Assembly: GCF_022341425.1 (NCBI RefSeq) | Contig: NZ_JABFUC010000001.1 | Span: forward strand, 124,001-188,000 | Direction: 5' to 3' | Length of the DNA: 64,000 nt | Origin: Billgrantia campisalis | GTDB taxonomy: Bacteria; Pseudomonadota; Gammaproteobacteria; Pseudomonadales; Halomonadaceae | Shown: positions 37,141 to 61,970 of the stretch, piece after piece | Position numbering within the stretch: position 1 is the stretch's first letter | How the letters are laid out: every line of letters starts with the position of its first letter | Program-made: the position numbers and the translations under genes | Notes under the pieces: model-generated | Database searches by the model: none | Told to the model about the DNA's origin: nothing | What the model saw: only the letters and a program-made list of their open reading frames with translations

Positions 37141-37791
37141 TCAGCCACGCCCGGCATCGGCACCTCGCACCGCCGCGATAAAGGCCTCGAGCCGCTCGGC
37201 GTCCTTGCGGCCGGGAGCCGCCTCGACGCCGCCCGACACATCCACCGCAAAGGGGTGCACGGTGGCGATGGCATCGGCCACATTCTCCGAGCGCAGGCCC
37301 CCGGCAAGGATAACAGCTTTCGCCAGGTTTTCGGGGATTCGCGACCAGTCGAAGGTCTCACCGGTGCCGCCGGGAACCCCCGGCCGATAGGCATCCAGCA
37401 GCAGCGCCCCGGCGCCGCGATAGGCCTCGGCCGCGGCGTGCAGGTCGAGGCCCTCGCGCATGCGCAGCGCCTTGATCCAGGGACGCGAGAAGCCGGCACA
37501 GAAGGCCGGCGCTTCATCGCCGTGGAACTGCAACAGGTCGAGGTGGCGCGCGCAGCGCTCGATCAGCGCCGGCTCCTGGTCGACGAACAGCCCCACCCGG
37601 GTGACGAAGGCCGGCACCCGGGCGCTGAGCTCGGCCAGCCGCGCCTCGTCCACCGCGCGCTTGCTGCCCGGCCAGAGCACGAAGCCCAGGGCATCGGCAC
37701 CGGCCGCCACCGCGGCATCGACATCCGCCTCGCGGGTCAGGCCACAGATCTTGATGCGGGTACGAGAGCAGGGAAAAGGCGTGTCGGCCAA
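37141..37791 (-). CDS. trpF: Phosphoribosylanthranilate isomerase
   Basis: TIM-barrel isomerase of tryptophan synthesis, 216 residues. Catalytic Cys in RIKICGLTREADVDAA and Asp in FAVDVSGGVEAAPG. Also LQFHGDEAPAFC. The start is TTG with GGAG 8-11 bp upstream. In Pseudomonas trpF directly follows truA; here the four-gene RiPP-like locus separates them, ending 85 bp upstream. Confidence 0.95.
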   Translation of the reverse strand: MADTPFPCSRTRIKICGLTREADVDAAVAAGADALGFVLWPGSKRAVDEARLAELSARVPAFVTRVGLFVDQEPALIERCARHLDLLQFHGDEAPAFCAGFSRPWIKALRMREGLDLHAAAEAYRGAGALLLDAYRPGVPGGTGETFDWSRIPENLAKAVILAGGLRSENVADAIATVHPFAVDVSGGVEAAPGRKDAERLEAFIAAVRGADAGRG

Positions 37792-37876: not shown

Positions 37877-38917
37877 TTACGGGTTCACCGTCGACGCATG
37901 AAGGTCCAAGCGAACGGCCTCATGCACCGCCGGCAAATGCGCATAGCCGCTAGGATACCATAAGCGCTTGATGGGAATGGATTGGGCGATACGGGCCAGG
38001 CGCTGGAAACGGCTTGCATGCAAGCGGCTTTCACCCTCCTCCGACGCCTCAGCGAATACGGGCCATTCGGCATGCGCATCGAAAAGGTGCACCAGGAAGG
38101 AGTGCCTGACCAGCTGGATCATGGCCTCCCCCGCCGCCACCGGATCGATTCGCACCGCGCCATCCGCCGCGTCGATATCGCCAGCCAAACGGCGCTCCAG
38201 CAGATAGATGCAGGCCACCGGCAGGGTCGCCGACGCTACCCTGCCGACCCGCCCCGCCGGCACGCTGAGCTTTGCAAAGGCCGGATGCACCAGGGGAAAA
38301 GTGTCCGTCTCACCGACAAATCGCCCCGCCTGCTCCGGCGTCAACTTCATCTGGGGGAAGCCATGTCGGCAAACAACGCTGCCATCGTGATAATGCAGCG
38401 CAGAAATATCATCGGCGAGCAGCGGGATCCCCGCCTCGACCAGCGAGGCTACCAGGGTACTCTTGCCCCCGGTGCGATCGGCGGCGAACAGCACCGCCCG
38501 GTCGTCAACGACCACCGCTCCGGCATGAATGGCCGCCACGCCCGACAGCTCGAGGTAGTAGGCCATCACATGCCCCAGCAGGCAGATCTCGACCATGTAC
38601 TCGAGCGCTGGGGCGTGGAGCTCGCAGCGGATCTCCCCCGCGCTCAGCCAGAAGTCCGCGATCCGCGGAAAGCGCATCACAATACCGGCCGGTGCGGCAT
38701 AAGCCTGCACGACCCTTTCCCCGAAGCGGTTCTTGTCGGGGCTCTGGTAGAGCGAGGTCTCTTCCAGCAGCGTTGGCGGCGGGGTCACATGCGTTAGATG
38801 AAAACGCAAGTCGGGCTGCATGTCCGAAGGCGCGGCGGTCATCGGGGTGCGGAAGGGGTAATCGGTTTCCAGACAGTAACCGAACAGGAGATGCCGATGG
38901 AAAGAAACGATCGCCAC
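37877..38917 (-). CDS. HPr-kinase-like P-loop protein of the RiPP locus
   Basis: About 346 residues. The GTG at 38917 is chosen because AAGGAG lies 8 bp before it; another GTG three codons earlier leaves only 1 bp. The central part (about 130-185) resembles the catalytic core of HprK: VAAIHAGAVVVDDRAVLFAA, a Walker A variant AADRTGGKST in which the first P-loop Gly is Ala, and a HprK-type LLADDISAL with paired Asp. The rest has no clear family. Related kinases occur in some lasso-peptide clusters, where they phosphorylate the precursor's C-terminal Ser. The precursor here ends in Leu, so the target is uncertain. 35 bp beyond the preceding gene and last of the four. Confidence 0.78.
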   Translation of the reverse strand: MAIVSFHRHLLFGYCLETDYPFRTPMTAAPSDMQPDLRFHLTHVTPPPTLLEETSLYQSPDKNRFGERVVQAYAAPAGIVMRFPRIADFWLSAGEIRCELHAPALEYMVEICLLGHVMAYYLELSGVAAIHAGAVVVDDRAVLFAADRTGGKSTLVASLVEAGIPLLADDISALHYHDGSVVCRHGFPQMKLTPEQAGRFVGETDTFPLVHPAFAKLSVPAGRVGRVASATLPVACIYLLERRLAGDIDAADGAVRIDPVAAGEAMIQLVRHSFLVHLFDAHAEWPVFAEASEEGESRLHASRFQRLARIAQSIPIKRLWYPSGYAHLPAVHEAVRLDLHASTVNP

Positions 38918-38951
38918 GCGCCACACTCCTTCGTCGCCGATACAAAATAGG

Positions 38952-40184
38952 TTAACGGTATATCAAGAGTCCGTTTTTCTCGAGTTCCGCCACGAAAACG
39001 GCAAGGTCATGGCCCAGGGTGGACGGGGCAATGTCGTAGCGCTCCAGCAGCGCTGCCTCGGCAGCCTCCAGGGTGCCGTGCTCTAGCACGTAGCGCCACA
39101 TCTCGGCTGCCGAGCCCTCCAGGCGGAAGCAGGGAGCGGTATGGCCTGAATCCTCCGGCATCCTCGCCACCGCAACGGCCGAGTCGATCTCGGCCCAGAG
39201 GACGCGATCGGCTGGCCTGATCGGGCCCGGGCAATTGGGGAGCAGCATGACGTTTCCCTCGATACCGGCGACAGCGGGCTCACACCGCAATGTTTCCGCC
39301 GCAATACGCCGCTTGAGGCACAGGTGGGAGGGCATGAGATGCCAGCCAGCCTCAAAGCGCCGGGCATCGGCATTCCAGAACTTTGAGTCGGGCTCGCTCC
39401 AGGCGAAGGCAAAATAGGCGACAACCCCGATCCAGTACCCCTGCTCGCCCGTTCGCGACTGCTGCTGACTGCACCATTCGGCATAGCCCTCCCCATAGCG
39501 TCGCGGCCCCAAGTCGCGCAGGACCTCGGCACTCAAGCAGTCGATAACCCGCGCTTCACGAGACATCAGTGCTTCCCGAAAGCCCTCGGGAGCCAGCAAG
39601 GAGGCAAACACGACCTGATGCTTTCCCGCATGCTTCAGGTATTGCTGCAGCCTCAGCCCGGAAATGGCACAGTCGTCCACGATCACGATCGGAGCACTGG
39701 GTCGCTCACTCCGGAGCGTGCCGATATCCCGAAGCTGATCGGGCCGTAGGTCGAGCGCATAGGCCAGCATGCCCAGCACTATATGCCCCCCACGAGGGAT
39801 GGTAGCGAAATGAAAGGAGCTTAGCTCCTCACGGCTGAAGCGCTGCCTGAGGCGCAGGGCCAAGCGCTCAGTCAGCTGCTCGGCATCTTGATAGTCGATA
39901 TAGCGGTAATGCTCGGTTGCCTCGTCAAGCAAGGTTGCCAGGTTCTGCAGGCGCTCATGTTCAAAGGCAGAGAAGTTTCCGAAGGCAGCGATCAGCGGTA
40001 CCGGGTGGCATCTGGCGACCTGCCTGACATTTGGCAACTTTCGCCATAGCGGATTGCTGGAAATCGTCGCCAACAAGGAAGAGAGCGCGGTTTCCACCGC
40101 GCTCTCCTGCATAAAAGACAGTAGATGTGAGATACGACCACCACCATCCCACAGCAGCACACTTCCAATGGATACCGGCGACAT
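38952..40184 (-). CDS. Phosphoribosyltransferase-like / PqqD (RRE) fusion protein
   Basis: 410 residues from the ATG at 40184. Residues about 95-240 look like a type I phosphoribosyltransferase: HFATIPRGGHIVLGMLAYAL (PRGG near 130-133) and PRPP-loop-like IVIVDDCAISGLR (Asp-Asp at 170-171). Residues about 325-410 have the PqqD/RiPP-recognition pattern: VLWAEIDSAVAVARM, FRLEGSAAEMWRYVLEHGTL, then a helical end with ELEKNGLLIYR. PqqD-like domains (B1 in lasso clusters) bind the precursor leader. The fusion to a phosphoribosyltransferase-like domain is unusual. 56 bp downstream of the precursor. Confidence 0.75.
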   Translation of the reverse strand: MSPVSIGSVLLWDGGGRISHLLSFMQESAVETALSSLLATISSNPLWRKLPNVRQVARCHPVPLIAAFGNFSAFEHERLQNLATLLDEATEHYRYIDYQDAEQLTERLALRLRQRFSREELSSFHFATIPRGGHIVLGMLAYALDLRPDQLRDIGTLRSERPSAPIVIVDDCAISGLRLQQYLKHAGKHQVVFASLLAPEGFREALMSREARVIDCLSAEVLRDLGPRRYGEGYAEWCSQQQSRTGEQGYWIGVVAYFAFAWSEPDSKFWNADARRFEAGWHLMPSHLCLKRRIAAETLRCEPAVAGIEGNVMLLPNCPGPIRPADRVLWAEIDSAVAVARMPEDSGHTAPCFRLEGSAAEMWRYVLEHGTLEAAEAALLERYDIAPSTLGHDLAVFVAELEKNGLLIYR

Positions 40185-40240
40185 TATCCACCCATCCAAA
40201 AAGTAGTTATTATTTTCACTTTAGCTATAGACTATTAAGT

Positions 40241-40414
40241 TCAAAGGCCAGGATTATCCTCATGGCCTCCTGGATCGACACTCCCCTGCCTCAGGTCACC
40301 TCCTGGGTTAGTCAGTCCCACTTGGGTAATGTCACTGACGCTTCCCCACTGCTTTAGCTGTGGGGGTTCATAGTGACGGAGCGTTTCTTGCTGCCTTTCT
40401 TCATTACGGCTCAT
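40241..40414 (-). CDS. Lasso-type RiPP precursor peptide
   Basis: 57 residues. The ATG at 40414 has GGGAG 8 bp upstream. Residues 15-30 read YEPPQLKQWGSVSDIT, an exact match to the leader motif YxxPxLxxxGxxxxxT bound by PqqD-type recognition domains. With the conserved Thr at position -2 (T30), the leader ends at Q31. The 26-residue core starts at V32, with the first ring (VGLTNPGGD) closable to D40 as a nine-residue macrolactam. The tail is long, Cys-free and without aromatic residues; it repeats an N/D-P-G-[G/L] motif three times in the core and ends DNPGL. Encoded between the cyclase-like gene and the PqqD fusion gene. Confidence 0.82.
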   Translation of the reverse strand: MSRNEERQQETLRHYEPPQLKQWGSVSDITQVGLTNPGGDLRQGSVDPGGHEDNPGL

Positions 40415-40548
40415 TTTCAATACTCCCGAATTCCGGCACACAATTAATTACAGTACCGCATCACAAGCATACAAACCTGGGGCCATAACGGCAAAATGAT
40501 TTTCATAACCCATCAATCAAATGTTTCTCATGCTTCGACACGCAAGCC

Positions 40549-42438
40549 TCACCAGAATTCACGCAACCAAAGCTCTAACGAGAGAGTTGACCATAGGTCA
40601 AACATCTTCCTTTCCCCATTAACGTAGGCGTTGAAATCATGGAGCAGTCGATCACCATCAATATAGCCTAGGCTGGCGCAGCGGCTGTCCTTGATCAACG
40701 CCATGACATTTGTGTAAGCCTCCTTGCGCAAGGCACGCTCATACAAGGGCTCTGGTGACACCTTCCTTGCCGACTCAATGGCCTCAGAAGGCATGATGCC
40801 GCGCATGGCGCGCCGGGGCAGGCGCTTAAAATCGCTGCGCCGGGTAAGCTGATGCTGAGGGCACGCCAGCACGAAGCTCGCCAGCCGTCGATCGCTCCAG
40901 GGGTCCAGCACTGACATGCCGTGAGCAGCCGCAGCACGGGCATCGTTAATCAGCCCTCGAGTGACGAAGGAGGAAAAGACGAGCTCATAGCGCTGCCGGC
41001 CGGCAAGATGGACACTGTCCGGCAGCTCGCCGTGGATGGAGATCCCGGGTACGACCCCATGCTGGGTGAGAAACGCCTGCCGAACATGAGCAGCCCCCAG
41101 CGGCGAGGGGCTGGCCGCCCACCCCAAGCGCTGAGCCAGCTGCTTCACCGCCGCCAAGGGCGCGGCCGACTGCGGCAATGATGGCTTGAGTAGTGTCGCA
41201 ACCAGCAAGCGCGCAGCCGAGCTCCGCGATGAACGGCGCAGCGAGCGCCACTCATCCAGCGCTTCTTGCCAGCGCCGCGCTGACACCAGCCCATGGAGCG
41301 CATTGACGTTGTCCCCGCACATCACGTCGCCACGATTTCCGGATATCATCGATCGCGCCCCATCCCGCCGTGCCGCTTCCAGGCTCTTATGAACGAATGC
41401 CTGGTACATGGTCATGAAGGGGTCGTCAGGATGTGGCACATGCAGAGCGAGATCATGCAGGGGGTATGTCAGTGAGGCATCGATCTCGGTGACGGGAATT
41501 TGATAGGCAGACGCTATACGATAAATATTGGCGCGCTCATCGCACTGCGGAAAATCGTTGAATGCCAAGCTATATGCTCGCAGTGTTGCAACGGGCTCGC
41601 CTTGCTGCCTAAGCCAGCCGGCCACGGAAGCCACCGAGCCAGAATCCATACCACCACTCAGGCTGATAGCAGCGGGAGAATCCATTGACTGTAGTCTACA
41701 GCGAACCGTTTCCAGTAGAATGTCGCGCAAATGCTCTACATAGTCGCCATCGTCGCGGTATATAAGCGTCTCACTTGGTACTGCCTGCCAGAATCGACGC
41801 CGCCGACACTGCCCTTGCAGGTTGACCGAAACGTGCTGTGCAGGCTCCAGTTCTTCTATACCGTCATAAAACGAGATGCCTGCCGGGGTTTGCATGCCCG
41901 CCAAGTGCCAGGCAACGGCTCGCTCATTGATCCGCTTAGGCACACGGCTTGCCGCCAGTAGCTGATGTGCTTCACTCGCGAACAGCAGGCAGTCGGGTTC
42001 AAGACGGTAGTAGAGTGTGCACATCCCCATGGCATCGCGTACAAGGTGCAGCTGCCGACGCTGACAATCCCACCAGGCGAACGCGAAATCGCCTAGCAGT
42101 TTATCCATCGCCTGCTCGCCACGCCGCTGCATGAGCGAAAGTATCGCGTCAGCATCGGAGTCTCTATCTGAGCACCGACCATCCAGCAGTTCCCGGCGAT
42201 TATCGAGTCGCGCACAGGCCACCAGTGCATGGGCGCTATTTCCGGAGACGGCAAGTCCGTCGACTGACCTATCACGCCTACCGCTGTCACGTAACAAGCA
42301 GGCGATGCCCAGCGGGCCCTGGTAGTGGTAGCGAATGCCATCAGGGCTTAGGTGAGCCGCACGGGCTGCCATGGATTCAAGCACCAGCGGTGATACCGGC
42401 TGGCCATCGAAGCGCAAGATTCCGCAAATTCCGCTCAC
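40549..42438 (-). CDS. Asparagine-synthetase-like enzyme (lasso cyclase type, C protein)
   Basis: About 629 residues from the GTG at 42438, which has GGGAGG 11 bp upstream and gives the usual family start VSGICGILRFDG. A TTG start 11 codons earlier is possible. N-terminal class II amidotransferase fold, but the Cys lies at residue 5, so it cannot be a processed N-terminal nucleophile. The C-terminal synthetase domain has the ATP-pyrophosphatase loop SGGMDSG (261-267). In lasso clusters this enzyme adenylates the ring Asp/Glu and forms the macrolactam. It precedes the precursor by 134 bp. First gene of the locus. Confidence 0.85.
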   Translation of the reverse strand: MSGICGILRFDGQPVSPLVLESMAARAAHLSPDGIRYHYQGPLGIACLLRDSGRRDRSVDGLAVSGNSAHALVACARLDNRRELLDGRCSDRDSDADAILSLMQRRGEQAMDKLLGDFAFAWWDCQRRQLHLVRDAMGMCTLYYRLEPDCLLFASEAHQLLAASRVPKRINERAVAWHLAGMQTPAGISFYDGIEELEPAQHVSVNLQGQCRRRRFWQAVPSETLIYRDDGDYVEHLRDILLETVRCRLQSMDSPAAISLSGGMDSGSVASVAGWLRQQGEPVATLRAYSLAFNDFPQCDERANIYRIASAYQIPVTEIDASLTYPLHDLALHVPHPDDPFMTMYQAFVHKSLEAARRDGARSMISGNRGDVMCGDNVNALHGLVSARRWQEALDEWRSLRRSSRSSAARLLVATLLKPSLPQSAAPLAAVKQLAQRLGWAASPSPLGAAHVRQAFLTQHGVVPGISIHGELPDSVHLAGRQRYELVFSSFVTRGLINDARAAAAHGMSVLDPWSDRRLASFVLACPQHQLTRRSDFKRLPRRAMRGIMPSEAIESARKVSPEPLYERALRKEAYTNVMALIKDSRCASLGYIDGDRLLHDFNAYVNGERKMFDLWSTLSLELWLREFW

Positions 42439-42576
42439 GACACGCTGAGCCTCCCGCCCTTCAAACGCCAAGGAGTCAGGCGATGAAGCCGCGGGTCGGG
42501 CTCAAGACCCCGCCTCCAGCGATGTTCAACGCCACTGCGACGCGCTGTCGACACTACACTCCGACCGACAGTCACT

Positions 42577-42657: not shown

Positions 42658-43629
42658 TCAGTCGACGGACGCCGCCACCGGCCTACCCCGCCGGAACTCG
42701 ACCATGGGGCAGTCGGGCAGCGCCCTCTCGCCGGTCCATTCGCCGAGAAACGCCAGCAGGTTCGGACCCAGCGGCTCGGCCGGCAGTCCCCAGGCCTCAT
42801 CGTAGAGCGAATCAACGAAGTGCAGGCCGCAGGCCGGGGCGGTGACGTCGGCCAAGGTACGATCCTTCAGCGCCATCAGCTCGGCCAGATAGTCATCGCC
42901 GCGCTCGCCGCGTCCCACGGTGACCAGTGCACCGACGATATTGCGGATCATATGGTGCAGGAAGGCGTTGCCCTGGACATCGACCACGACCAGGGGGCCG
43001 TGGCGATGCACTTCGATGAAATGCAGATGGCGCCAAGGGGTCTTCGACTGGCAGCCGCCGGCGCGGAAGCTCGAGAAGTCGTGCTCACCCACCAGCGCCT
43101 GGGCGGCACGGTGCATGGCGTCGGCATCCAGCGGGTCGCGACACCAGGTGACGTTGGCGCGCTCCAACACCGGACGGCTGGGCTGGTTGAGGATCACATA
43201 GCGGTAGCGACGCGCCAGGGCCTTGAAGCGGGCGTGGAAGGTATCCGGCACCTCGTGCACCCAGCGCACGGCGACATCCCGCGGCAGATTGGCATTGACG
43301 CCGAACACCCAGGCCTTCTGGGAGCGCGGCACCGGCGGGTCGAAGTGGACGATCTGGCGAGTGGCGTGCACGCCGGAGTCGGTACGGCCGCTGGCATGTA
43401 CCGTTATCGCGTGGTTGGCCACCTTCGCCAGGGCCGCTTCCAGCGCCCCCTGCACCGAAGGCGCATGCTTGAGCCGCTGCCAGCCGCAGTAGGCGCTACC
43501 GTCGTATTCCACGCTGAGGGCCAGGCGGCCGCTCAGCGGTCGGCGTTCATCGAGAGGTTGGAACAGGGTCATTCGGCCGTCAGCTTCGCTTGTATCGAGA
43601 GTGGGTCGTATCGGACTGGGCAGCTTCAC
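42658..43629 (-). CDS. truA: tRNA pseudouridine(38-40) synthase
   Basis: Modifies U38-40 in tRNA anticodon stem-loops. 323 residues from a GTG whose last bases overlap the fimV stop (GTGA); an ATG at 43572 giving 304 residues is also reasonable, because family similarity begins after it. Catalytic Asp in HASGRTDSGVHATRQ, YDGSAYCGWQRL near the start, GQ-type GCQSKTPWRHL, and NAFLHHMIRNIVGAL. Confidence 0.95.
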   Translation of the reverse strand: MKLPSPIRPTLDTSEADGRMTLFQPLDERRPLSGRLALSVEYDGSAYCGWQRLKHAPSVQGALEAALAKVANHAITVHASGRTDSGVHATRQIVHFDPPVPRSQKAWVFGVNANLPRDVAVRWVHEVPDTFHARFKALARRYRYVILNQPSRPVLERANVTWCRDPLDADAMHRAAQALVGEHDFSSFRAGGCQSKTPWRHLHFIEVHRHGPLVVVDVQGNAFLHHMIRNIVGALVTVGRGERGDDYLAELMALKDRTLADVTAPACGLHFVDSLYDEAWGLPAEPLGPNLLAFLGEWTGERALPDCPMVEFRRGRPVAASVD

Positions 43630-60450: not shown

Positions 60451-60604
60451 AGGGAAAATCGCCTGCAAGGGCATGAAATTTCACGCCATTTCCGCCTATA
60501 CTGCATGGGCATCGTGAGCACACCTCCTTTCAGCTCGGGAAGGATACCGAGTGGGGATCATTCAGGAGCCGGAAGATCATTCGACCAAAGTAAGGAACCC
60601 AACG

Positions 60605-61000
60605 ATGAAAAAGCTCTGCCGTATTCTCAGCCCGCTGCTAATTCTTGCCCTGGTGCTGGGCAGCCTGTCGGTGTCCGCCGCCCCGCTTGCACCGGGCAGC
60701 GATCTGATCTCCACCCAGGCAGCGCTCTCCGCCGAGCGTGCCGATAGCGACCGCGAGCGGATTCATGAGGTCCTGGCCCGTGACGACGTTCAGGCGCAGC
60801 TGGTGGCCCAGGGCGTGGACCTGGACGAAGTGGAGGCTCGCGTGGCGGCGTTGTCCGATGCGGAAGCCCGCCAGATGGCGGACCAGCTTGAAGAGATGCC
60901 CGCGGGAGCCAGCGTGGTCGGCGCCCTGTTTGCCGTCTTCGTGATCCTGCTGGTTACCGACATCCTCGGCCTGACCAACGTCTTCCCCTTTACGCGCTGA
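60605..61000 (+). CDS. PA2779-family (DUF6627) secreted/membrane protein
   Basis: 131 residues from MKKLCRILSPLLILALVLGS, a signal peptide; the frame begins 18 codons earlier. After SAAPLAPGSDL comes a helical region with EVLARDDVQAQLVAQGVDLD and VAALSDAEARQMADQLEEMP, then a C-terminal TM helix (ASVVGALFAVFVILLVTDILG). The layout matches the PA2779 family, which is found beside a PA2778-like cysteine peptidase, as here (10-bp gap). Function unknown. Confidence 0.8.
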   Translation: MKKLCRILSPLLILALVLGSLSVSAAPLAPGSDLISTQAALSAERADSDRERIHEVLARDDVQAQLVAQGVDLDEVEARVAALSDAEARQMADQLEEMPAGASVVGALFAVFVILLVTDILGLTNVFPFTR

Positions 61001-61010
61001 AGCCGTACGC

Positions 61011-61970
61011 ATGCCTGATGCAATCCCTCAGCGCATCGCTCGACTTATCAACGCCCGCCTAGCGGGCGTTATCGCATTGGCGTTCGCTTTTCTACTGATA
61101 ACCGGCTGTGCCACATCGCCAGCGTTAAGCGAAACCGCCCAGCAGCAGCTGCCGCGCCAGTCACAACTGAGCGATGTCCCCTTCCACGCCCAGCGCGACT
61201 ACCAGTGCGGCCCGGCCTCCCTGGCCATGGTACTCCACGCCGACGGCGTCGACGTGGAGGTCGACACCCTGATCCCACAGGTCTTTCTGCCCGGGCGCGA
61301 GGGTAGCGTCCAGCCGGAAATGCTGGCCACCGTGCGGCGCCACGGCCGCATTCCCTTTGTGCTCGACACGAGCTTCGAGGCTCTGGTGACCGAGTTGGCC
61401 GCCGGTCGGCCGGTGGTGGTGATGCAGAACCTGTCGCTGCCCGCCTGGCCGCTGTGGCACTACGCCGTGGCGATCGGCTACGACCTCGACACCCGGGAGA
61501 TGACCCTGCACAGCGGCGAGGAAGCGGCGCGCATCGAGTCCTTCCGCCGCTTCAATGCCACCTGGGCCCGCAGCGATCGCTGGGCCTTCGTGGCATTGCC
61601 ACCGGGCGAGCTTCCCGAGGGAGTAGCGGAGGATCGCGCCCTGGAAGCAATCGCCGATTACGAGCAGGTTCAGGGAGCGGCAGCCGCCCTGCCCGCCTGG
61701 GAGGCCCTGGTTGGCCGCTTCCCCGATTCGGCCCTAGGGCACTTCGCGCTAGGCAACGCCCGCTACGAACTGGGAGACATCGAAGGCGCCATCGAAGCGT
61801 TCGAACATGCAACGGACATCCACCCCGACCTCGCCGTCGGCTGGCTGAATCTGGGGCTGGCACTGCAGGAACAGGGCCAACGGGACGCCGCGCAAGAGGC
61901 GCTGACACGCGCCGCTACCCTGCCGGGACGCTGGCAGGCTAAGGCCGAAGCCGCCTTGGGTGCACAATGA
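61011..61970 (+). CDS. PA2778-family C39-like peptidase lipoprotein with TPR repeats
   Basis: 319 residues. Signal peptide with lipobox (FLLITGCATS). Residues about 50-200 form a C39-like papain fold: catalytic Cys in YQCGPASLAMVLHADGV, His in LWHYAVAIGYD and Asp following. C-terminal tetratricopeptide repeats (about 220-310, ALGHFALGNARYELGDIEGA). Predicted lipoprotein protease or peptide-processing enzyme, partner of the preceding gene. Confidence 0.87.
   Translation: MPDAIPQRIARLINARLAGVIALAFAFLLITGCATSPALSETAQQQLPRQSQLSDVPFHAQRDYQCGPASLAMVLHADGVDVEVDTLIPQVFLPGREGSVQPEMLATVRRHGRIPFVLDTSFEALVTELAAGRPVVVMQNLSLPAWPLWHYAVAIGYDLDTREMTLHSGEEAARIESFRRFNATWARSDRWAFVALPPGELPEGVAEDRALEAIADYEQVQGAAAALPAWEALVGRFPDSALGHFALGNARYELGDIEGAIEAFEHATDIHPDLAVGWLNLGLALQEQGQRDAAQEALTRAATLPGRWQAKAEAALGAQ

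What the first reader, a model, noticed from the sequence alone, without database searches (positions are those of the whole stretch)
37877..42438. Four-gene lasso-type RiPP locus without a visible leader protease or exporter
The genes run on one strand in the order cyclase-like, precursor, phosphoribosyltransferase-PqqD fusion, HPr-kinase-like. The leader motif, the PqqD domain and the asparagine-synthetase-like enzyme together are the hallmark of lasso-peptide loci. The usual B2 transglutaminase-like protease (Cys-His-Asp) and the ABC exporter are absent, and every base between truA and trpF is otherwise accounted for. Either the protease is encoded elsewhere, the phosphoribosyltransferase-like domain replaces it, or the product is not a classical lasso peptide.
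Basis: partly seen in the sequence, partly recalled or inferred. Interest (0 to 1): 0.93.

Follow-up and report, generated by a model that had tools for sequence, protein, structure and literature searches.

The report
Lasso-peptide pathway with phosphoribosyltransferase-like tailoring enzyme
Four neighbouring genes in a Halomonas-type bacterium likely form one half of a split pathway for a knotted (lasso) peptide; the genome's only gene of the matching protease family lies 27 kb away next to a transporter gene, and one of the four proteins, a predicted phosphoribosyltransferase fold fused to a leader-binding domain, would add a sugar-phosphate to the peptide, a modification I did not find reported for such peptides.

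The parts
40549..42438 (-). Lasso cyclase-like protein (C), asparagine-synthetase type
   Evidence: PF00733 110 bits, NF033535 272.6 bits (below its cut-off 525); each residue of SGGxDS conserved in at least 48 of 49 relatives scored at 550 bits or more; only NF033535-matching protein in this genome at E up to 0.001. GTG start at 42438 chosen; an upstream TTG at 42471 is possible.
40241..40414 (-). Lasso precursor peptide (A), 57 aa; leader Y(-17)..P(-14).L(-12)...T(-2); proposed core VGLTNPGGD(9)LRQGSVDPGGHEDNPGL
   Evidence: NF033521 lasso leader 24.1 bits over cut-off 19; 50 unique leader-matching ORFs near the fusion gene in this and related loci. The core start is inferred from T(-2).
38952..40199 (-). 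PRTase-PqqD (RRE) fusion, 415 aa: N-terminal region 1-95, type-I PRTase fold about 96-297, PqqD/RRE about 325-415
37877..38926 (-). HprK-like peptide kinase (K)
   Evidence: TIGR04352 33.1 bits, below cut-off 200; His, Lys and two Asp residues conserved in 49 of 49 relatives scored at 250 bits or more.
42658..43629 (-). truA, upstream flank; lies between the two halves of the pathway
   Evidence: ORF; 83-92% identical homologues lie beside the locus in 6 of 12 fetched same-genus relatives (L018-L023).
37141..37791 (-). trpF, downstream flank
   Evidence: ORF; used as a landmark.

Best explanation
The locus is most likely one half of a split lasso-peptide pathway in which the B2-family protease, its B1 partner and the exporter encoded 27 kb away would act in trans, and in which a phosphoribosyltransferase fold fused to a leader-binding domain is predicted to add a phosphoribosyl-type group to the precursor. 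Proposed order: the leader (Y..P.L ... T(-2)) is bound by the stand-alone B1 and by the PqqD domain of the fusion. The HprK-like kinase would phosphorylate Thr4 of the core (five residues before the ring Asp9), as BsfK does to Ser3 of BsfA. The fusion's PRTase domain would then use PRPP on that phospho-residue or on another group of the leader-bound peptide. B1/B2 from the distant module would remove the leader, the cyclase would join Val1 to Asp9, the nucleotidyltransferase-like protein may add a further sugar or nucleotide, and the ABC protein would export the product. Shown by calls: gene content, location, single copy of B2, conserved motifs, predicted folds, co-occurrence. Inferred: trans action (my estimate 0.85), Thr4 as kinase target (0.6), PRPP-dependent peptide modification (0.4), the acceptor residue (0.2).
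For: One lasso B2 and one lasso cyclase-like protein in the genome, at two places. B2 module: B2, PqqD, ABC, NTP_transf_5. Contiguous versions: G094 NT-ABC-C-A-fusion-K-B2-B1 and G117 B1-B2-NT-ABC-C-fusion-K (a precursor ORF beside the fusion was found for G094 only); G018, G048, G054, G088. Four genomes with lasso-type cyclases at two sites and one B2. B2 over cut-off in 9 of 13 same-genus genomes with the fusion against 12 of 77 without (p 1.7e-4; at least 90% complete: 9 of 10 against 11 of 71, p 5.6e-6). Among 39 named loci with at least 2 kb on both sides, 35 have the kinase and 35 the cyclase nearby. PRTase and RRE folds. Conserved motifs. Ring Ser/Thr at D-5 in 36 of 47 fusion-linked precursors against 2 of 12 others, the position BsfK modifies (PMC10368454, passages).
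Against: No expression, product or activity data. 4 of 13 fusion-bearing same-genus genomes show no B2 over the cut-off: G016, a truncated locus, and G060, G061, G063, which are 85-88% complete. The PRTase domain matches no Pfam PRTase model over cut-off. The alignment to E. coli Gpt is weak (hhalign probability 7.4%, E 0.0048 for one comparison) and puts Ile/Leu where Gpt has the third Asp of IDDLVDTG, so the catalytic machinery is not that of a purine enzyme. Foldseek/VIA matches show fold, not activity. D-5 Ser/Thr is missing in 11 of 47 fusion-linked precursors with a ring acid, and 3 more have no acid at 7-9. The PRTase domain could bind PRPP or a nucleotide as a regulator; one fold match (5vog) is a ppGpp-bound protein. 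NF033535 also rings in control genomes without lasso loci, and G146 and G156 have a third, weaker match (187 and 174 bits), so it counts lasso cyclases only roughly.
Confidence: 0.55

Rival explanations
1. The fusion is a non-catalytic adaptor: its PqqD domain delivers the precursor to the kinase, and its PRTase-like domain senses PRPP or a nucleotide (or only scaffolds), much as BsfB1 accelerates BsfK without being an enzyme.
For: BsfB1 speeds phosphorylation by BsfK (PMC10368454, passages). The third Asp of Gpt's IDDLVDTG is Ile/Leu here. PRTase-fold regulators (PyrR) are among the fold matches. The fusion gene usually neighbours the kinase gene (35 of 39 loci with at least 2 kb flanks).
Against: Clusters also carry a stand-alone PqqD (25 of 63 loci; 30 of the other 38 have under 8 kb on one side), so a second plain adaptor seems redundant. 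PRGG and DD...G are invariant in 59 sequences, relatives being 29-75% identical to this one, stronger than I would expect for a scaffold.
Confidence: 0.3
2. The PRTase-like domain replaces the B2 protease and the locus is a self-sufficient four-gene lasso system.
For: Neither B2 nor exporter is seen between truA and trpF.
Against: B2 exists once in this genome and once in each of 7 other fusion-bearing genomes searched. In several relatives B2 is in the same cluster as the fusion. The fold is a PRTase.
Confidence: 0.04
3. The locus is a decaying remnant: cyclase, precursor, fusion and kinase persist after rearrangement and no product is made.
For: Decay occurs in relatives: G016 keeps a truncated fusion and no cyclase nearby; G084 and G156 carry the fusion gene in two pieces.
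Against: In this genome the four ORFs are uninterrupted and keep the conserved motifs, and the distant B2 module is intact. A two-site layout with truA in between recurs in 8 of 15 genomes (this one included) with B2 and fusion on one contig.
Confidence: 0.08
4. The distant B2 module serves only another peptide, so the four-gene locus uses an unknown protease.
For: In G123, G136, G146 and G156 the B2 module is next to a different cyclase and precursors with a C-terminal Ser.
Against: In this genome no other lasso cyclase-like match exists and no leader-matching ORF was found, by the pattern used, in the 20 kb around B2. In G094 the B2 gene is adjacent to the kinase and fusion genes, and in G117 it is in the same gene block.
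Confidence: 0.08

Closest known systems
bsf lasso cluster of Bradymonas sediminis (BsfA, B1, B2, C, D, K, N; PMC10368454, passages read)
   Same: Same gene set without the fusion: precursor with Y(-17)/P(-14)/L(-12), discrete B1, B2, cyclase, ABC transporter, kinase, predicted nucleotidyltransferase; ring Ser/Thr five residues before the ring acid.
   Different: Penultimate leader residue Ile, 8-residue ring, no PRTase-RRE fusion listed, genes in one cluster.
Paeninodin and pseudomycoidin clusters (PadeK, PsmK, PsmN; known to me here through passages of the review PMC9266682)
   Same: Kinase with a His-Lys-Asp-Asp motif acting on the precursor; pseudomycoidin adds a nucleotidyltransferase-like enzyme that installs hexose on the phosphorylated Ser.
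   Different: They phosphorylate a C-terminal Ser; fusion-linked precursors end in Ser in only 2 of 50. No PRTase fusion in the passages seen.
Type-I phosphoribosyltransferases (for example HGXPRT 5bqp, E. coli Gpt)
   Different: Fused to a lasso RRE; the third Asp of Gpt's IDDLVDTG replaced by a hydrophobic residue; genomic context is RiPP synthesis.
Lasso B1 proteins TbiB1 and TfuB1 (5v1u/5v1v, 6jx3)
   Different: Here fused to an enzyme fold, and the genome has a stand-alone PqqD in addition.
Cebulassopins, lasso peptides from a split operon (only the title seen, in the reference list of PMC13352647)
   Same: Lasso pathway genes not in one operon.
   Different: Paper not read; no link to a PRTase fusion known to me.

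Membership tests
Lasso peptide biosynthetic gene cluster | Precursor with YxxPxL leader motif, Thr(-2) and Asp/Glu at core position 7-9 | tested here: met
   NF033521 24.1 bits over cut-off 19; Y(-17), P(-14), L(-12), T(-2), D9 by counting on the sequence.
Lasso peptide biosynthetic gene cluster | Asparagine-synthetase-like cyclase (C) | tested here: met
   PF00733 over cut-off; NF033535 272.6 bits is below its cut-off of 525; SGGxDS conserved.
Lasso peptide biosynthetic gene cluster | RRE (B1) and B2 leader protease encoded in the genome | tested here: met
   NF033537 62.3 bits over 33, single copy; PqqD 65.8 bits over 23.4; both 27 kb away from the precursor.
Lasso peptide biosynthetic gene cluster | Threaded macrolactam product | not testable with these tools
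   Needs mass spectrometry or NMR.
Paeninodin-type kinase lasso clusters | C-terminal Ser in the precursor as kinase target | tested here: not met
   This precursor ends in Leu; 2 of 50 fusion-linked precursors end in Ser against 12 of 13 precursors of other clusters.
BsfK-type ring-phosphorylating kinase clusters | Ser/Thr five residues before the ring acid | tested here: met
   Thr4 with Asp9 here; 36 of 47 fusion-linked precursors with a ring acid. Phosphorylation itself not tested; kinase not compared with BsfK by sequence.
HPr-rel-A system (TIGR04352 kinase) | HprK_rel_A equivalog score over 200 bits | tested here: not met
   33.1 bits.
Type-I phosphoribosyltransferase | PRTase fold | tested here: met
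Type-I phosphoribosyltransferase | Over-threshold family match | tested here: not met
   PF24390 16.6 of 27 and PF00156 11.5 of 26.3 bits.
Type-I phosphoribosyltransferase | PRPP-dependent transfer activity | not testable with these tools
   PRPP-site residues invariant in 59 aligned sequences; activity needs an assay.

The most novel reading that the evidence does not exclude
A leader-guided phosphoribosyltransferase modifies lasso peptides: the fused RRE presents the precursor, the kinase phosphorylates the ring Thr/Ser, and the PRTase domain transfers phosphoribose from PRPP onto it, giving the first PRPP-dependent modification of a ribosomal peptide, spread across more than ten phyla.
Probability: 0.33. 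Interest if true: 0.88.

Novelty: new variant of a known kind. Interest (0 to 1): 0.64.

Why it matters
If the PRTase domain is active, lasso peptides carry a chemical group that the review passages and word searches here did not show, and a new enzyme handle would mark a distinct, widely spread subclass with a ring-phosphorylation signature. The split layout also shows how cluster-based mining can call such loci incomplete: in five of 15 genomes with both genes on one contig, B2 lies 24-33 kb from the fusion gene with truA between them, and in four of these five one B2 may serve two precursor classes, which can be tested directly.

Tried and rejected
PRTase as protease substitute: rejected (B2 present). 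HPr-rel-A membership: rejected by score. C-terminal Ser as kinase site: rejected by the precursor ends. I first took the tail Gly-Ser as the likely kinase site; G[ST]-hydrophobic is in 43 of 49 fusion-linked tails (shuffled mean 7.8, maximum 18), but also in 6 of 13 other precursors (shuffled mean 1.4, maximum 6), so it is not specific, and the D-5 ring position fits better. A first scan of genome contigs with the single protein found no relative; the alignment found 63 loci. Promoter and terminator scan: 3 promoter-like sites against 1.4 expected, only one on the coding strand, and one terminator-like site against 3.4 expected; uninformative. The N-terminal 95 residues of the fusion were not folded or searched alone. 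The best match of the fusion profile to a solved PRTase by sequence is 1wd5 at E 0.12. Cyclase and kinase trees: fusion-linked rows need 4 label changes each, not one clade; heterocystous cyanobacterial rows sit apart.

Counting choices. Alignment A1 holds 58 of the 59 proteins plus the window's own (P0025, 269 residues, left out); itself scored only the 7998 candidates sharing most words. In one search only rows over set scores were used (kinase 250, cyclase 550, B2 60, fusion 300 bits), so weaker relatives were dropped; in that set of 61 fusions the R and both G of PRGG are in 60. In one search the ORF pattern itself demands Y/W/F..P.L and Thr, so those are not independent findings; several loci gave no matching ORF; L023 and the short single-gene loci were left out; fusion-linked means a fusion gene on the same strand within 3.5 kb. 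In one search the ring acid was taken at 9, else 8, else 7. In one search only 9 candidates a genome were scored, of a sample of 201 genomes.

Literature: searches found no paper with their terms; some searches gave listings in which I saw no PRTase linked to a lasso peptide or RRE by title or abstract start. One search listed 11 papers with both 'lasso peptide' and 'phosphoribosyl'; I looked at the word in two of them (histidine and purine biosynthesis genes only), nine were not opened. 'Phosphoribosyl' does not occur in the main texts held of PMC9266682, PMC7470986, PMC12710340, PMC13352647 and PMC10368454; supplements not read. The library lacks most subscription papers.
Full report
Observation. 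The window is G000:C11:124001-188000 of a 4.27 Mb genome. Between truA and trpF, on the minus strand, lie a cyclase-like gene (40549-42438), a 57-residue precursor (40241-40414), a 415-residue fusion (38952-40199) and an HprK-like gene (37877-38926). The precursor passes the lasso leader model (24.1 bits, cut-off 19). The cyclase matches asparagine-synthetase families and, below its cut-off, the lasso cyclase model NF033535. The fusion has PqqD over cut-off and only sub-threshold PRTase hits. The kinase hits HprK models only below cut-off.

The missing protease. A whole-genome search with PF13471 gave one match, at C11:191619-191951. Reading the stretch and family scans give B2 (NF033537 62.1 bits, cut-off 33), a 90-residue PqqD protein, an ABC transporter and an NTP_transf_5 protein at C11:191496-195360, next to UDP-sugar dehydrogenase and polysaccharide-synthesis genes. 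This is 27 kb from the fusion gene and 3.5 kb beyond the window. NF033537 finds one B2 in each of 8 fusion-bearing genomes tested, this one included. NF033535 finds a single cyclase-like protein in G000, G024 and G066. No leader-matching ORF was found, by the pattern used, in the 20 kb around the G000 B2. The two places therefore hold complementary parts.

Relatives. The fusion has a match in 13 of 90 same-genus genomes, this one included. PF13471 over its cut-off is present in 9 of these 13 and in 12 of the other 77; among genomes at least 90% complete, 9 of 10 and 11 of 71 (Fisher p 1.7e-4 and 5.6e-6, relatedness ignored). The four without B2 are G016 (truncated fusion, no cyclase nearby) and G060, G061, G063 (85-88% complete). 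Seven further fusion-bearing genomes from other genera, out of a family sample of 201, all have B2. In 15 genomes B2 and fusion are on one contig, 1.2 to 33 kb apart; G066 has them on different contigs. The layout ranges from one block (G094: NT, ABC, cyclase, precursor, fusion, kinase, B2, PqqD; also G117, G018, G048, G054, G088) to two sites with truA between them in 8 of 15 (G000, G020, G024, G084, G123, G136, G146, G156). In G123, G136, G146 and G156 the distant site has its own cyclase, its own kinase-like genes and precursors ending in Ser, but NF033537 finds one B2 in each genome. G146 and G156 also have a third, weaker NF033535 match elsewhere; that model rings in control genomes too, so these may be ordinary asparagine synthetases. 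The simplest reading is that this B2, with its PqqD and exporter, serves both precursors. This is inferred.

Breadth. A scan of named genomes gave 63 loci with the fusion. In one search rows from such loci carry 13 phylum labels (among them Pseudomonadota, Spirochaetota, Verrucomicrobiota, Cyanobacteriota, Gemmatimonadota, Acidobacteriota, Chloroflexota, Nitrospirota, Deinococcota, and one archaeal label); many are metagenome bins, so single labels may be wrong. Of 63 loci, 49 have the kinase within 3.5 kb and 47 the cyclase within 5 kb; of the 39 with at least 2 kb on both sides, 35 and 35. B2 was recognised in 23 of 63, and in 13 of 22 with at least 8 kb on both sides. Examples of the compact order PqqD-B2-cyclase-fusion-kinase are L069 (Spirochaetales), L104 (Chloroflexi) and L109 (Nitrospirae).

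Precursors and kinase. I collected 50 unique leader-matching ORFs near fusion genes and 13 beside other lasso cyclases. C-terminal Ser: 2 of 50 against 12 of 13. Ser/Thr five residues before the ring acid: 36 of 47 with a ring acid against 2 of 12; other ring positions of the fusion-linked set have Ser/Thr in 3 to 8 rows. BsfK of Bradymonas phosphorylates Ser3 of a core whose ring acid is Asp8, that is the same D-5 position, in a precursor without a C-terminal Ser (PMC10368454, passages). The kinase His, Lys and two Asp residues are conserved in 49 of 49. I therefore predict Thr4 as the kinase target here. PsmN, a nucleotidyltransferase-like enzyme, is credited with putting hexose on phosphoserine in pseudomycoidin (review PMC9266682, passages), a precedent for a second enzyme acting on the phosphate.

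Mechanism and limits. The fused RRE implies that the PRTase domain acts on, or in the presence of, the leader-bound precursor, before B2. The most economical use of kept PRPP loops is transfer of phosphoribose to the peptide. Which atom receives it is unknown. The rival that the domain only senses PRPP or a nucleotide and helps the kinase is not excluded.

Novelty. Split lasso operons are known (a title in the reference list of PMC13352647), as are kinase- and nucleotidyltransferase-bearing lasso clusters. A PRTase fused to an RRE was not seen in the papers searched (limits under Tried and rejected), and no NCBIfam or Pfam model covers the fusion as a whole. I file it as a new variant of the lasso-peptide kind.

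Noticed in passing
G000:C11 and same-genus genomes: In 17 of 21 same-genus genomes with a PF13471 protein over cut-off, such a gene lies 11-42 kb from trpF on the same contig (in the other 4 it is on another contig; G040 and G084 have a second copy elsewhere). Lasso genes of the genus seem tied to one chromosomal neighbourhood that, in G000, contains polysaccharide genes.
   Followed up: partly
L193, L194, L197, L199 (genomes G123, G136, G146, G156): A second lasso system with precursors ending in ...KPGS or ...QPGS and HprK-like genes of a different branch sits at the B2 site, 24-33 kb from the fusion locus.
   Followed up: partly
L192 5237-5569, L196 6899-7072, L198 9734-9964: Extra leader-bearing small ORFs beside or near the kinase position share a PGS[TV] tail; two of the three have no acid at core positions 7-9. 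Possible second substrates without a normal ring.
   Followed up: no
L028 (G016): Truncated fusion gene and a kinase gene beside trpF, no cyclase found in the stretch, no B2 over cut-off in the genome: a probable relic of the pathway.
   Followed up: partly
L023 (G084), L198 (G156): The fusion gene lies in two pieces in these genomes (the cyclase gene too in G084).
   Followed up: no
window 60551-61970: A small hydrophobic-peptide ORF followed by a 319-residue ORF that by eye looks like a cysteine-peptidase plus TPR protein; not searched.
   Followed up: no
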